A DNA stretch of 13,558 nucleotides from an uncultured Lachnospiraceae bacterium (GTDB lineage: Bacteria > Bacillota > Clostridia > Lachnospirales > Lachnospiraceae). The stretch spans positions 1 to 13,558 of the forward strand of contig CANTGP010000034.1 in the NCBI GenBank assembly GCA_947653315.1. The letters run 5' to 3'. Both the position numbers and the translations under genes were made by a program. Below, in pieces: positions 1 to 5,931 of the stretch. The number at the start of each line of letters is the position of its first letter. The first letter of the stretch is position 1. Under the pieces are notes generated by a model. It had not been told where the DNA came from. It did not search any database and was given only the letters and a program-made list of their open reading frames with translations.

Positions 1-70
1 AACCGGGACAGGAAGTTCCGTTGCTGCCGGCCACTAAAAAAACTCACGCACGGGCGTCCCCCCCAACACA
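1..70. repeat. Partial, diverged copy of the long inverted-repeat element (right end only)
   Basis: The first 70 bases line up with the right end of the large element at 4648-4967. Shared blocks in the same order are AACCGGGACAGG (1-12, matching 4892-4903), GCTGCCG (23-29, matching 4911-4917), an A-run, CGTCC, and CCCAACACA (62-70, matching 4959-4967). The two sequences diverge right after CCCAACACA, which suggests a common element boundary there. The rest of this copy would lie upstream of the window. Between the blocks there are many substitutions and small indels, so this is an old or degenerate copy. Confidence 0.6.
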
Positions 71-118
71 ACATTCAGGCTGAATTGTTGTGTGTTTATC
101 CTTTTTTTATGTTTTTTT
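66..118 (+). terminator. Rho-independent terminator of an upstream, off-window gene
   Basis: ACACAACATTCAG (66-78) pairs with CTGAAT-T-GTTGTGT (80-93) with one bulged T, giving a stem of about 13 bp with a minimal loop. T-rich sequence follows at once, including seven-T runs at 102-108 and 112-118. This is the usual intrinsic terminator layout. It would end transcription entering from the left and insulate the MarR promoter just downstream. The stem reuses the CAACACA bases that close the repeat copy at 1-70. Confidence 0.7.
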
Positions 119-2807: not shown

Positions 2808-4648
2808 GCGGAGAGAACAGACAGCCGCGCAGGGGACCGCACGGACCTGGACATGGCATGATGCCGGGGGAAAAGGCACGGGATTTTAAGGGAACCCTGC
2901 GTAAAATATTAAAGTATATGGGCGCTTACCGTTATGCTTTGCTTGCGGTAATGGTGTTTGCGGTGGGCGGTACGGCGTTTAACATTATCGGGCCTAAGGT
3001 TTTAAGTCAGGCGACCACGGAGCTGTTTAACGGACTTATGGCGAAAGTGGCTGGAAAAGGGGGCATTGACTTTGGGAAAATCGGCAGGGTACTGCTGGTT
3101 CTTTTGGGGATTTACGCCTTAAGTTCCTTCCTTTCATTTTTACAGGGAATGATTATGACGGGTATTTCCCAAAAAATGTGCTACCGGTTCCGTAAGGAGA
3201 TTTCGGAGAAAACGAACCGGATGCCGTTGGAATATTTTGAGTCAAGGACCGTTGGGGAAGTGCTTTCCCGCATTACCAACGACGTGGATACGCTGGGGCA
3301 GAGCTTAAACCAAAGCATTACGCAGCTCATTACGTCGGTGACGACAATTGTGGGCGTTTTGGTTATGATGTTAAGCATCAGTCCGCTCATGACACTGATT
3401 GCGTTAATCATCCTTCCGGTTTCCGGGACACTGATTGGGCTTGTGGTGAAATTTTCCCAAAAGTATTTTGTGGCGCAGCAGAATTACCTTGGGAAAATTA
3501 ACGGGCAGGTGGAGGAGGTCTACGGCGGCCACAATATCGTCAAGGCGTTTAACCGGGAGGAGCGGGCGTTGGAGGAATTTAACGAAACCAATGCGGTGTT
3601 GTACCGGTCCGCCTGGAAATCCCAGTTCCTTTCCGGCATGATGCAGCCCATTATGATGTTTGTGGGAAACTTAGGTTATGTGGCAGTGGCGGTCAGCGGA
3701 AGCCTGCTCGCCATAAAGGGTACCATCCAAGTGGGGGATATCCAGGCGTTTATCCAGTATGTCAAGAACTTCACCCAGCCCATCACCCAGGTGGCGCAGG
3801 TGTCCAACATGCTCCAGTCCATGGCGGCGGCTGCGGAGCGGGTATTTGAGTTTTTGGATGAAAAAGAGGAAGACGTAAACGTGGACCATGCGGCCAGCCC
3901 GGAGAAAATAAAGGGCAGTGTCCGTTTCCGCCATGTGCGGTTCGGCTACAAGCCGGATAAAATGATCATCCATGATTTTTGCAGCGAAGTGGAACCGGGG
4001 CAGATGGTGGCTATCGTGGGACCCACCGGGGCGGGGAAAACGACGATGGTGAAGCTGCTGATGCGTTTTTATGACGTAAACGGCGGAAGCATTGAGCTGG
4101 ACGGCCATGACATACGGGAATTTAACCGGAGCGAACTGCGGGAAGGATTCGGCATGGTACTTCAGGATACCTGGCTGTTTAAAGGGACGATTATGGAGAA
4201 TATCCGTTACGGCAGGCTGGACGCCACGGACGAGGAGGTCATCGAGGCGGCAAAGGCGGCACATGCCCACCGGTTCATTCAGACCCTTCCCGGCGGATAC
4301 CAAATGGAACTGAACGAGGATGCCAGCAACGTATCGCAGGGGCAGCGGCAGCTTTTAACCATAGCCCGCGCCATTCTTGCCGATAACCGGATTCTGATAC
4401 TGGACGAGGCGACCAGCTCCGTGGATACGAGGACGGAAGCGAGGATTCAGAAGGCAATGAATAACCTCATGAAAGGGAGGACCAGTTTCGTCATCGCCCA
4501 CAGACTTTCCACGATACGGGATGCGGATTTAATCCTGGTCATGAAGGACGGGGATATCATAGAGCAGGGAAACCATGGGGAACTGTTGGCGAAGAACGGG
4601 TTTTATGCGGAGCTTTATAATTCCCAGTTTGAGGAAGTTACGGCTTAG
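2804..4648 (+). CDS. ABC exporter half-transporter, catalytic-NBD subunit (TM288/BmrD-like)
   Basis: A 614-residue membrane domain plus ATPase. A 30-residue Gly/Pro/His/Arg-rich tail precedes TM1 (about 42-63). The ATPase carries Walker A GPTGAGKTT (406-414), Walker B LDEAT with catalytic E535, and H-loop H566 in IAHRLST, all canonical. The signature is VSQGQ (510-514) rather than LSGGQ; a Q in this position is typical of the TM288/BmrD partner, whose signature completes the degenerate site with Walker A/B of the other subunit. GGAAGGAGG (2786-2794) gives a strong ribosome site, and the start overlaps the previous stop (ATGA). The gene ends at the very edge of the inverted-repeat element, yet its C-terminus (YNSQFEEVTA) looks complete. 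Partner of the preceding gene in one exporter; substrate not predictable. Confidence 0.94.
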   Translation: MSGENRQPRRGPHGPGHGMMPGEKARDFKGTLRKILKYMGAYRYALLAVMVFAVGGTAFNIIGPKVLSQATTELFNGLMAKVAGKGGIDFGKIGRVLLVLLGIYALSSFLSFLQGMIMTGISQKMCYRFRKEISEKTNRMPLEYFESRTVGEVLSRITNDVDTLGQSLNQSITQLITSVTTIVGVLVMMLSISPLMTLIALIILPVSGTLIGLVVKFSQKYFVAQQNYLGKINGQVEEVYGGHNIVKAFNREERALEEFNETNAVLYRSAWKSQFLSGMMQPIMMFVGNLGYVAVAVSGSLLAIKGTIQVGDIQAFIQYVKNFTQPITQVAQVSNMLQSMAAAAERVFEFLDEKEEDVNVDHAASPEKIKGSVRFRHVRFGYKPDKMIIHDFCSEVEPGQMVAIVGPTGAGKTTMVKLLMRFYDVNGGSIELDGHDIREFNRSELREGFGMVLQDTWLFKGTIMENIRYGRLDATDEEVIEAAKAAHAHRFIQTLPGGYQMELNEDASNVSQGQRQLLTIARAILADNRILILDEATSSVDTRTEARIQKAMNNLMKGRTSFVIAHRLSTIRDADLILVMKDGDIIEQGNHGELLAKNGFYAELYNSQFEEVTA

Positions 4649-4967
4649 GAAGTGGCGGACGCACGGGCGGGAGTTCTTTACGGGGCGGCGGCAGAGGGAT
4701 TGCCCTTCCCGGTTTTCCGTGCACTTTTTTCGGCTGGGAGTTTCTTGGCAGAATGCAGACACCTAAGGGGAAATGGGCATGGATGCCCATTTCAGCCCGA
4801 GGCGGCACGGATGCCGCTTGAGGGCGCCCGCAGCTTGTGAAAACCTACGCCATTCTGCTTAGAAACTCCCAGCCGGAAAAAGTGCACGGAAAACCGGGAC
4901 AGGCAATCCTGCTGCCGCCGCCCCGCGAAAAAATCCCGTCCGTGCGTCCGCGCCGCTTCCCAACACA
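4648..4967. repeat. Long inverted-repeat element (MITE-like) with structured core
   Basis: The left arm (about 4648-4755) and right arm (about 4851-4960) are reverse complements over roughly 108 nt, with about a dozen mismatches and a few one- or two-base indels counted by eye. Long exact blocks include GGTTTTCCGTGCACTTTTT, GGCTGGGAGTTTCT and CGGGGCGGCGGCAG. The 95-nt core holds two perfect hairpins. A related right end occurs at 1-70 and shares the terminal CCCAACACA, so the element is dispersed. There is no transposase and no convincing target-site duplication. It fills the gap between the ABC operon and the punA promoter. A transcript would form a very long hairpin that may also stop transcription. 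MITE, structured RNA, or both are possible. Confidence 0.8.
4770..4829. other. Twin hairpins with A-N-GGA loops in the core of the inverted-repeat element
   Basis: Hairpin 1 is a perfect 11-bp palindromic stem (4770-4780 with 4783-4793), effectively GGGCA-TGGA-TGCCC with four loop bases. Hairpin 2 pairs 4800-4807 with 4812-4819 (one G-T pair) around loop CGGA (4808-4811). Both close on GGCA/TGCC and show ATGGA or ACGGA at the tip. Each is followed after a few bases by GAGG (4799-4802 and 4820-4823), and a small palindrome GGGCGCCC (4822-4829) may be a worn third unit. If transcribed on the + strand, the loops resemble CsrA-type recognition sites (ANGGA in a hairpin loop). This reading is inference; no csrA gene is in the window. 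Confidence 0.6.
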
Positions 4968-4996: not shown

Positions 4997-5025
4997 TTGT
5001 CAGAAAATAATAACTATGGTACAAT
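4997..5025 (+). promoter_or_regulatory. Sigma-A-type promoter of the nucleoside salvage operon
   Basis: TTGTCA (4997-5002) and TACAAT (5020-5025) are separated by a 17-bp AT-rich spacer. Expected transcription start is near 5032, leaving a leader of about 78 nt before punA. The promoter lies 30 bp beyond the end of the inverted-repeat element, in AT-rich sequence quite unlike the GC-rich element. It is the only good promoter candidate I see before the series of closely spaced genes running to rnhA. Confidence 0.75.
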
Positions 5026-5109: not shown

Positions 5110-5931
5110 ATGAATGGCGATTACGGGAAGTTAATGCGTTGTTATGAAAGTTTCCAAAAGAAAATCAGTTTTAAACCGCGCGTGGCAATCGTGCTCGGTT
5201 CGGGGCTTGGGGATTTTGCGGATACCATCAAAGTGGAGGCGGAGCTTTCCTATGCGGATATTGAGGAGTTTCCCGTGTCCACCGTACCGGGACATGCGGG
5301 GAAGTTTATTTTCGGTTATGTGGGTGAAGTACCCGTGGTATGCATGAAAGGAAGGGTCCATTATTATGAGGGCTATCCCATCGGCGATGTGGTGCTTCCC
5401 ACAAGGCTGATGAAGTTGATGGGGGCGGAGGTTTTGTTCCTGACCAATGCGTCGGGCGGAGTGAATACCGGGTTCCGGGCAGGGGATCTGATGCTGATTA
5501 CGGACCATATCTCCGTATTTGCCCCGAATCCTTTGATCGGACCGAACATCGATGAATTGGGAACCCGTTTCCCCGATATGAGTACGGTGTACGACCGTAA
5601 ACTGCAGGATATCCTGCGGCAGACGGCGGCGGAAAACGGGATCGGTTTAAAAGAAGGGGTGTACGTGCAGTTTACCGGTCCTTCCTTTGAGTCCCCGGCG
5701 GAAATAAGGATGGTGCGCGCCCTCGGAGGGGATGCCGTCGGTATGAGTACGGTGGTGGAAGCCATTGCGGCGAACCATATGGGAATGCGCATCTGCGGAA
5801 TTTCCTGTGTGTGTAATCTGGCGGCGGGCATGACGGAGCAGCCGCTTACCCACGCGGAGGTGCAGGAGGCGGCGGACAAGGCGGCTCCCTTGTTTACGAA
5901 ACTGGTGGCGGAGGCGGTGAAGAAATTTTAG
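5110..5931 (+). CDS. punA: Purine nucleoside phosphorylase, trimeric PNP class
   Basis: This 273-residue enzyme cleaves purine (2'-deoxy)nucleosides with phosphate to free base plus (deoxy)ribose-1-phosphate in the cytosol. Length and motifs fit the trimeric PNP/MTAP family: phosphate-loop GSGLG (30-34), PGH (60-62), GRVHYYEG (81-88), NASGG (113-117), GPSFESPAE (190-198) and GMSTVVE (211-217). N236 in CNLAAG aligns by eye with human PNP N243, the residue tied to 6-oxopurine preference, so inosine and guanosine are the likely substrates rather than MTA. GGGGGTG precedes the ATG by 5 nt. It is the first gene after the promoter at 4997-5025 and is followed by cytidine deaminase 49 nt downstream. 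Confidence 0.95.
   Translation: MNGDYGKLMRCYESFQKKISFKPRVAIVLGSGLGDFADTIKVEAELSYADIEEFPVSTVPGHAGKFIFGYVGEVPVVCMKGRVHYYEGYPIGDVVLPTRLMKLMGAEVLFLTNASGGVNTGFRAGDLMLITDHISVFAPNPLIGPNIDELGTRFPDMSTVYDRKLQDILRQTAAENGIGLKEGVYVQFTGPSFESPAEIRMVRALGGDAVGMSTVVEAIAANHMGMRICGISCVCNLAAGMTEQPLTHAEVQEAADKAAPLFTKLVAEAVKKF

What the first reader, a model, noticed from the sequence alone, without database searches (positions are those of the whole stretch)
4648..4967. Dispersed ~320-bp element with two ~108-nt inverted arms and a structured core
The arms match over their whole length with only scattered differences, far beyond any terminator. No protein is encoded, and a diverged relative of the right end sits at 1-70. 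Shared boundaries at two places argue for a mobile or once-mobile non-autonomous element, possibly with a conserved RNA fold. It sits directly behind the ABC stop codon and 30 bp ahead of a promoter. Direct: arms, core, second partial copy. Inference: mobility and RNA function.
Basis: partly seen in the sequence, partly recalled or inferred. Interest (0 to 1): 0.72.

Follow-up and report, generated by a model that had tools for sequence, protein, structure and literature searches.

The report
Mobile foldback element carrying TwoAYGGAY RNA
A non-coding, hairpin-forming piece of DNA found in dozens of places in this bacterium's genome carries at its tip a conserved RNA motif of unknown role, and in two close relatives it lands at a fixed distance in front of gene promoters, which gives an orphan RNA family a concrete and testable biology.

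Summary
Window 4649-4967 is a ~320-bp inverted repeat (101-nt arms, 88% complementary). Its apex is Rfam RF01731, TwoAYGGAY (81.5 bits, cut-off 43), an RNA candidate of unknown function. The element is dispersed: about 40 places in this fragmented genome, 62 Rfam matches in relative G015.

It is mobile. In sister genomes G004/G015, 10 of 64 copies with recognisable ends have exact 8-10-bp target duplications (shuffled expectation 0.29). Four of 12 G004 sites are contiguous empty sites in G015, a fifth nearly so.

Two features look new. (1) In G004/G015, 23 of 45 copies have a promoter whose -35 box starts 19-23 nt outside one end. (2) Arms are nearly identical within a copy but differ strongly between copies (97% against 69%; 93% against 55% in G433), with G.U and A.C mismatches about equally common, whereas apical hairpins tolerate only G.U (9 against 0). 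I infer that DNA copying keeps the arms paired and RNA selection keeps the apex.

No transposase partner was found; the RNA's role is unknown.

The parts
4649..4755 (+). left arm of the foldback element
   Evidence: inverted repeat I1; fold
4851..4967 (+). right arm and truncated right end (CCCAACACA 4959-4967 is the start of the right-end consensus CCCAACACAACATTCAGGCTGAACTGTTAC read from other copies of this genome)
4723..4883 (+). TwoAYGGAY RNA core, full-length match to RF01731 (81.5 bits, cut-off 43)
4775..4788 (+). apical hairpin 1, loop ATGGAT 4779-4784
4802..4817 (+). apical hairpin 2, loop ACGGAT 4807-4812
4649..4667 (+). left end that mirrors the right arm instead of the common left end of this genome's copies (outward TGGGTAA after GTGC in 5 of 8 left ends seen): palindrome run past the normal end
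   Evidence: the copying direction is inference
1..89 (+). right end of a second copy, cut by the contig start
4997..5025 (+). host promoter next to the element: -35 TTGTCA 4997-5002, 17 nt, -10 TACAAT 5020-5025, in front of the purine nucleoside phosphorylase-like gene at 5110
   Evidence: 10 of 12 consensus bases; gene named by eye

Best explanation
It is a non-autonomous foldback transposon (MITE-like), moved in trans by an unidentified transposase that leaves 8-10-bp target duplications. In the G004/G015 subfamily insertion is directed to a fixed place, about 20 nt upstream of the -35 box of existing sigma-A promoters, in either orientation. Shown: copies, conserved ends, duplications, empty sites, the promoter distance in two genomes. 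Inferred: arm pairing is maintained at the DNA level, by template-switch (snap-back) copying of one arm onto the other, which makes each copy's arms private and near perfect and now and then runs past the end into the flank. Inferred: the apex is expressed from the + strand and selected as an RNA, probably as a protein-bound structure that serves the element (its transposition or its control) or, after insertion, nearby genes.
For: Copies: 41 places by my hand count of the listing in G000, with only 40 of 138 candidates scored; 62 Rfam matches in G015; 14 of 41 genomes, the own one included, carry the family. Duplications: 10 of 64 copies, 0.29 expected from shuffled partners. Empty sites: 4 of 12 contiguous, 1 nearly so. 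Target: promoter-like sites (9 of 12 bases or better) at offsets 20 and 21 in 8 and 23 of 189 ends, at most 3 at any other offset, inward control at most 2; 23 of 45 two-ended elements have one at 19-23 nt (10 left, 12 right, 1 both). Empty alleles already carry the -35 box at 4 of 5 sites, read by eye (TTGACA, TTGAGA, TTGACG, TTGACT). Arms: within-copy identity 0.968 and between-copy 0.686 in 16 B copies, cores 0.851; 0.933, 0.549 and 0.810 in 10 G433 copies. One orthologous G004/G015 site keeps the borders but has unrelated arms. Isolated mismatches in outer arms: G.U 92, A.C 75, p 0.22. Palindrome overrun of 15 and 18 nt in 2 of 64, and at the window's own left end. Apical hairpins: 878 Watson-Crick, 9 G.U, 0 A.C.
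Against: No autonomous partner found, but the search was partial: end-like matches in 20 G015 stretches (one search lists only the first part of 140 places), ORFs read in 4 of the 20. The one transposase gene between inward-facing end matches (L194) belongs to a separate IS with its own ends. The two long IS256-type genes of G015 lack these ends. The promoter distance is shown for G004/G015 only; in the other 12 genomes 5 of 107 arm ends have a strong promoter within 50 nt, 1 of 107 at 150-200 nt. 22 of 45 elements show none at the fixed distance. In the window's own genome right arms are alike between copies (80-97% to the window's), so private arms are not seen there. Some A copies have arms only 66% alike. 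Two G008/G014 copies look more conserved than their flanks (by eye), which hints at constraint. Overruns are rare (2 of 64). The apical wobble count is small (9, two shared by G000 copies). An IS that inserts into the hairpin-1 loop shows that this hairpin is also read as DNA.
Confidence: 0.7

Rival explanations
1. The whole ~320-nt hairpin, arms included, is one structured RNA gene or cis-regulatory RNA kept by selection for RNA pairing; copies spread only as passengers.
For: Rfam match above cut-off; very stable fold; two G008/G014 copies look more conserved than flanks.
Against: Outer arms show no significant G.U excess over A.C (92 against 75; 298 against 382 in all columns of 131 copies). 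Gene context is orientation-neutral (--37, -+35, ++30, +-20 of 122 copies with a called ORF on both sides).
Confidence: 0.15
2. A CsrA-binding sponge RNA: the AYGGAY loops titrate CsrA, and many copies raise the dose.
For: Loop match proposed in print (PMC4333381, passages); csrA found above cut-off in 11 of 14 carrier genomes.
Against: csrA is also in 16 of 27 non-carriers, and was not found in carriers G003, G009, G013 (97, 83 and 65% complete). Insertion polymorphism, ends and duplications are not explained by it.
Confidence: 0.15
3. A long terminator or transcription insulator between neighbouring genes.
For: Intergenic position; stable hairpin.
Against: No preference for gene 3' ends: 35 of 122 copies lie between divergent ORFs and 20 between convergent ones; presence differs between sister genomes.
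Confidence: 0.07
4. Arms are newly made at each transposition from a variable donor rather than homogenised in place later.
For: Many B copies have arms perfect or nearly so although copies differ by ~31%.
Against: One orthologous site with the same borders carries different arms in G004 and G015, which fits replacement in place. A second site first counted with it is better read as a separate insertion beside the remnant of an older end (own duplication GTCAGGGAAA), so the odds here are raised from 0.25 to 0.3.
Confidence: 0.3

Closest known systems
Rfam RF01731 TwoAYGGAY RNA (Weinberg 2010, PMC2864571: table row seen)
   Same: The core 4723-4883 is a full-length match above cut-off; two AYGGAY hairpins; same broad taxa (relatives of the window's class, two Lachnospiraceae, one gammaproteobacterium).
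   Different: In the passages seen it is an RNA candidate (RNA probable, not cis-regulatory, not a riboswitch). Here it is the apex of a mobile element; the Rfam outer stem is the inner part of arms that go much further.
Bacterial MITEs: Correia/NEMIS, RUP, ERIC, YPAL (PMC2229807, passages)
   Same: Non-coding, dispersed, intergenic, terminal inverted repeats, target duplications, stable RNA stem-loops, empty sites.
   Different: Those reviewed are ~100-200 bp, most with end repeats of 4-24 bp; here arms are mostly 60-200 bp, private to each copy in two genomes examined, with a conserved multi-hairpin apex and, in two genomes, a fixed distance to the -35 box.
Eukaryotic foldback/Mutator elements (PMC3169594, search listing and start of abstract; duplication size recalled)
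   Same: Long inverted arms, duplications of similar size.
   Different: No sequence relation tested; no Mutator/IS256 partner found in G015.
Quasipalindrome correction by template switching (PMC8604942, passages; others as search listing)
   Same: Known mechanism that homogenises inverted-repeat arms.
   Different: That study treats short repeats; here arms of about 60-130 bp in many dispersed copies.
IS elements that insert into repetitive palindromes, such as IS1397 in E. coli PUs (recalled)
   Same: A DDE_Tnp_1 IS of G015 inserts into the hairpin-1 loop of the element with a 10-bp duplication.
   Different: It is a visitor with its own ends, not the element's partner.
Promoter-directed retroelements such as Ty3 (recalled)
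   Same: Insertion at a fixed distance from promoters.
   Different: Bacterial, non-coding, sigma-A promoters; contact with RNA polymerase is not tested.

Membership tests
Rfam RF01731 TwoAYGGAY | score above the curated cut-off over the full model | tested here: met
   81.5 bits against 43, model 1-168
Rfam RF01731 TwoAYGGAY | two hairpins with AYGGAY loops | tested here: met
   loops at 4779-4784 and 4807-4812 in the window; by a strict loop and 5-bp stem rule only 17 of 130 copies have both
Rfam RF01731 TwoAYGGAY | stems that covary | tested here: met
   110 hairpins with 32 different stems; pairs 2-5 each use all four Watson-Crick types, pair 1 is always C-G
MITE-like element | multi-copy, non-coding, conserved ends | tested here: met
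MITE-like element | target-site duplication | tested here: met
   relatives G004/G015 only: 10 of 64 against 0.29 expected; not tested by a call for the window copy, whose right end is truncated
MITE-like element | empty sites in relatives | tested here: met
   of 12: 4 contiguous, 1 nearly so, 4 split by an insert, 3 matched in part only
MITE-like element | autonomous partner with the same ends | tested here: inconclusive
   none found in a partial search of G015
CsrA-sequestering RNA | binds CsrA | not testable with these tools
   only csrA presence counted: 11 of 14 carriers, 16 of 27 others
REP/RAYT system | movement without target duplication (recalled) | tested here: not met
   duplications present
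REP/RAYT system | linked Y1 (RAYT) transposase gene | not tested
   no search for Y1 transposases was made

The most novel reading that the evidence does not exclude
A new kind of bacterial mobile element: its transposition complex finds promoters, perhaps through RNA polymerase or sigma factor, it carries a structured RNA that takes part in movement or its control, and its long arms are rebuilt by snap-back DNA synthesis so that every copy has a private, nearly perfect palindrome.
Probability: 0.2. Interest if true: 0.9.

Novelty: new variant of a known kind. Interest (0 to 1): 0.7.

Why it matters
TwoAYGGAY has been an RNA candidate without a known function since 2010. Showing that it is the tip of a mobile foldback element changes the question from 'what does this sRNA regulate' to 'how does this element move and pick promoters', and both are testable. 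Promoter-directed insertion at base-level spacing would be notable in bacteria. The element also sits at many assembly breaks of its host genome: at least 26 of the 41 places I count lie at a contig end.

Tried and rejected
Long arms as an RNA selected by pairing: no wobble bias. Terminator or cis-regulatory RNA: gene orientation neutral. Composite transposon between divergent pairs: the DNA between holds ordinary host-type genes, a ribH-like gene in G008/G014, an EF-G-like gene in G019, a P-loop NTPase-like ORF in Psychromonas, an acetyltransferase-like ORF in G240 (named by eye from translations). IS256/Mutator partner in G015: no matching ends at the two long genes. The transposase gene beside a copy in L194, which I first took as unrelated without a test, was followed up: it is an IS with its own ends that inserts into the element. 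Empty site for the window's own copy: no match to the ABC C-terminus within about 1.5 kb of PNP in the 15 other genus genomes, so none could be read. Their genomes nevertheless gave named carriers. Plasmids and phages, distant blastn with the window element: no match. Rfam mir-584 (43.1 bits, cut-off 80) is taken as an effect of the long hairpin. G014:C2:1930494 looks like an inverted contig-end artefact; it is still, and was dropped and, with two contig-cut copies. L337 was fetched too short through my typing error, so its arms could not be measured.

Full report
WHAT IS THERE. The inverted repeat is real: arms 4655-4755 and 4851-4951, 88% complementary, 95 nt apart, fold energy z -20.5. It sits between the stop codon of the second ABC exporter-like gene (4646-4648) and a good promoter (TTGTCA 4997-5002, N17, TACAAT 5020-5025) of a PNP-like gene. 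Rfam places the apex, 4723-4883 +, in RF01731 TwoAYGGAY (81.5 bits against 43); the hairpin loops ATGGAT and ACGGAT lie at 4779-4784 and 4807-4812.

WHAT IS KNOWN. The library holds 7 papers with the word TwoAYGGAY, 5 listed, and 4 with RF01731. I read passages in the five listed: the 2010 table (probable RNA, not cis-regulatory, not a riboswitch), Rfam 15, a proposal that it binds CsrA, which also says the external stem is not well conserved, a covariation paper and a stability study. PMC7682815 was not opened. None of these passages mentions mobility, which is no proof that nobody has noted it. Searches for repeat elements of this kind in other words (3, 1, 8 and 1 papers listed) gave, by title and abstract start, one useful MITE review (PMC2229807, passages read). 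on promoter-proximal transposition lists 15 of 42 papers; none is by title or abstract start about bacterial promoter targeting.

COPIES. In the window's own genome (3.24 Mb, 508 contigs) a search with 4648-4967 gave 91 matches; 40 of 138 candidates were scored, and I count 41 separate places in the listing, at least 26 of them at a contig end. The partial copy at window 1-89 is of this kind: the contig begins inside an element. In 41 genomes (own plus 40 relatives) 14 have the RNA family, all above its cut-off; a fuller scan gives 62 in G015. In 391 genomes of the class, 36 have a match and 27 one above cut-off. Of 17 distant matches fetched from other families (G077, G065, G403, G216, G060, G055, G258), 15 have arms of 57-178 columns; L343 has 14 and L337 was fetched too short. 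Among 21 named genomes reached through the scan, 3 carry it: Lachnospiraceae bacterium RGIG8602 (G433; 37 matches, 36 above cut-off), Lachnospiraceae bacterium Mgla_MAG_3-bin_26 (2) and Psychromonas ossibalaenae ATCC BAA-1528 (12). I could not name the window's own genus.

ENDS AND MOBILITY. Aligned G015 copies end in GGAAATCAATTTT and its complement, usually with CAC or similar outside. For 64 two-ended elements of G004/G015, 10 have an exact direct repeat of 8-10 bp at the ends, against 0.29 expected when partners are shuffled (examples). Twelve joined-flank constructs from G004 were searched in G015: constructs 4, 5, 6 and 10 match one contiguous stretch, 11 nearly so; 1, 2, 3 and 9 are split by an insert; 7, 8 and 12 match in part only. 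Alignments of the five are; where flanks diverge the exact join cannot always be placed. Between the fetched copies of G004 (22) and G015 (53) two sites share both flanks, and a third, contig-cut one shares one flank; not all copies of either genome were fetched.

TARGET. Reading outward from 189 end-like matches of G004/G015 (127 with a G-rich inner side), TTGACA-like boxes (5 of 6 or better) peak at offset 20 (7) and 21 (18), at most 3 elsewhere. With a -10 box at 16-18 nt (9 of 12 in all), offsets 20 and 21 hold 8 and 23, other offsets at most 3; the inward control has at most 2. Per element, 23 of 45 have such a promoter at 19-23 nt, on the left in 10, the right in 12, both in 1; three control windows hold 9 hits together. 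The empty alleles carry the -35 box too at 4 of 5 sites (read by eye), so the promoter belongs to the host. Base-level spacing is hard to get from selection against bad insertions alone, so I read it as target choice; that is inference. It is not shown outside G004/G015: 5 of 107 ends in the other 12 genomes have a strong promoter within 50 nt, 1 of 107 at 150-200 nt. In G433, 6 of 20 ends score 9 or more, at distances from 11 to 43 nt. The window copy has its promoter 30 nt past 4967, but its right end is truncated, so no distance can be compared.

ARMS. In 131 copies from 14 genomes the arm alignment has 12,925 Watson-Crick columns, 298 G.U, 382 A.C and 1,015 other mismatches, plus 878 gaps. 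Counting only mismatches with three paired neighbours on each side, and dropping three copies, outer arms have G.U 92, A.C 75, others 40 (p 0.22); the inner 30 columns have 2, 5 and 111, the last mostly fixed internal-loop positions by my reading. A selected RNA helix should prefer G.U. In apical hairpins the count is 878, 9 and 0 (the nine are listed, two shared by G000 copies). Within a copy, left and right arm identity is 0.968 (median, 16 B copies), while left arms of different copies are 0.686 alike (shuffled 0.556) and cores 0.851; for 11 A copies 0.875, 0.616 and 0.874. In G433 (10 of its copies) 0.933, 0.549 and 0.810. Left arms are G-rich in G015 (44-45%) and C-rich in G433 (35%). In the window's genome, by contrast, right arms of other fetched copies are 80-97% identical to the window's. 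At one orthologous G004/G015 site (G004:C79:9037, G015:C2:128811) the borders agree and the arms do not. At the second (G004:C93:38268, G015:C2:556300) the G004 copy has its own duplication, GTCAGGGAAA, and lies beside what looks like the remnant of an end like that of the G015 copy, so I now read it as a separate, later insertion. Two G008/G014 sites look more conserved than their flanks (by eye). Palindromes run 15 and 18 nt past the end in 2 of 64 copies. In the window the left end reads GAAGTGGCGGACGCACGGG, mirroring the right arm, where 5 of 8 other left ends seen continue outward with TGGGTAA directly after GTGC.

AN IS THAT AIMS AT THE APEX. G015 has 8 copies of an IS whose transposase carries a DDE_Tnp_1 domain (62 bits); no copy shows in the G004 listing. 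By reading, in 5 of 8 (L387, L389, L391, L393, L395) both sides of the IS are the two halves of one B-type element, and the join is the loop of hairpin 1, with a 10-bp duplication such as CCATGGAGGG or CCATCCATGG. In a sixth (L385, the same place as L194) one side is such a half and the other is a second, A-type element. Two (L397, L399) lie in other DNA. This is a visitor that uses the hairpin as a target, not the missing partner; it shows that the hairpin is recognisable as DNA too.

INTERPRETATION. Homogenisation of inverted-repeat arms by template switching is a known process (PMC8604942, passages). It accounts for arms that are nearly perfect within a copy, private between copies, without wobble bias, and occasionally longer than the element. 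The apex behaves differently and looks like an RNA. Its job is not shown. The CsrA proposal stays open: csrA is in 11 of 14 carriers and 16 of 27 non-carriers, no clear link. The neutral orientation to genes (--37, -+35, ++30, +-20, simple ORF calls) speaks against a terminator or leader role.

LIMITS. Most genomes used are unnamed assemblies; ends in several genomes are less clear than in G004/G015; the search for a transposase was partial; no expression data. The overall claim of a mobile foldback element carrying the TwoAYGGAY core is strong (about 0.9); the promoter rule is strong for two genomes (about 0.85 there); arm homogenisation at the DNA level about 0.7; RNA function of the apex about 0.7, its nature open.

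Noticed in passing
L387, L389, L391, L393, L395, L385 (G015): A DDE_Tnp_1 IS inserts into the hairpin-1 loop of the element: 5 of 8 IS copies split one element there with a 10-bp duplication, a sixth keeps one half.
   Followed up: partly
G015, G023, G448, G216, G260: Neighbouring copies within ~600 bp are mostly divergent (- then +): by hand count of these capped listings 9 divergent, 2 tandem, 0 convergent. Unexplained.
   Followed up: partly
G000 contigs: At least 26 of 41 counted places lie at contig ends, so the element probably causes much of the assembly's fragmentation.
   Followed up: partly
L190, around 2440-2483 (G015:C3:679170): Mini-element with its two ends almost fused, an apparent 8-bp repeat AATTAAAT and TTGACA next to it (read by eye).
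   Followed up: partly
G014:C2:1930494 and G014:C1:4273 (L168, L167): Both flanks of one copy match the same ~620-bp flank of the other, once inverted, near contig ends: likely assembly fold-back.
   Followed up: partly
L107, upstream of PNP in G013: A different palindromic repeat and a short tandem array (GACTTATGCATAG) sit in front of the PNP gene there.
   Followed up: no
L034/L056 (G023) and L070 (G019): Copies with very different stem sequences but the same architecture, useful for a covariation model.
   Followed up: no
G004:C79:28831 and G023:C14:83673: Second, more divergent CsrA homologues in two genomes that carry the element.
   Followed up: no
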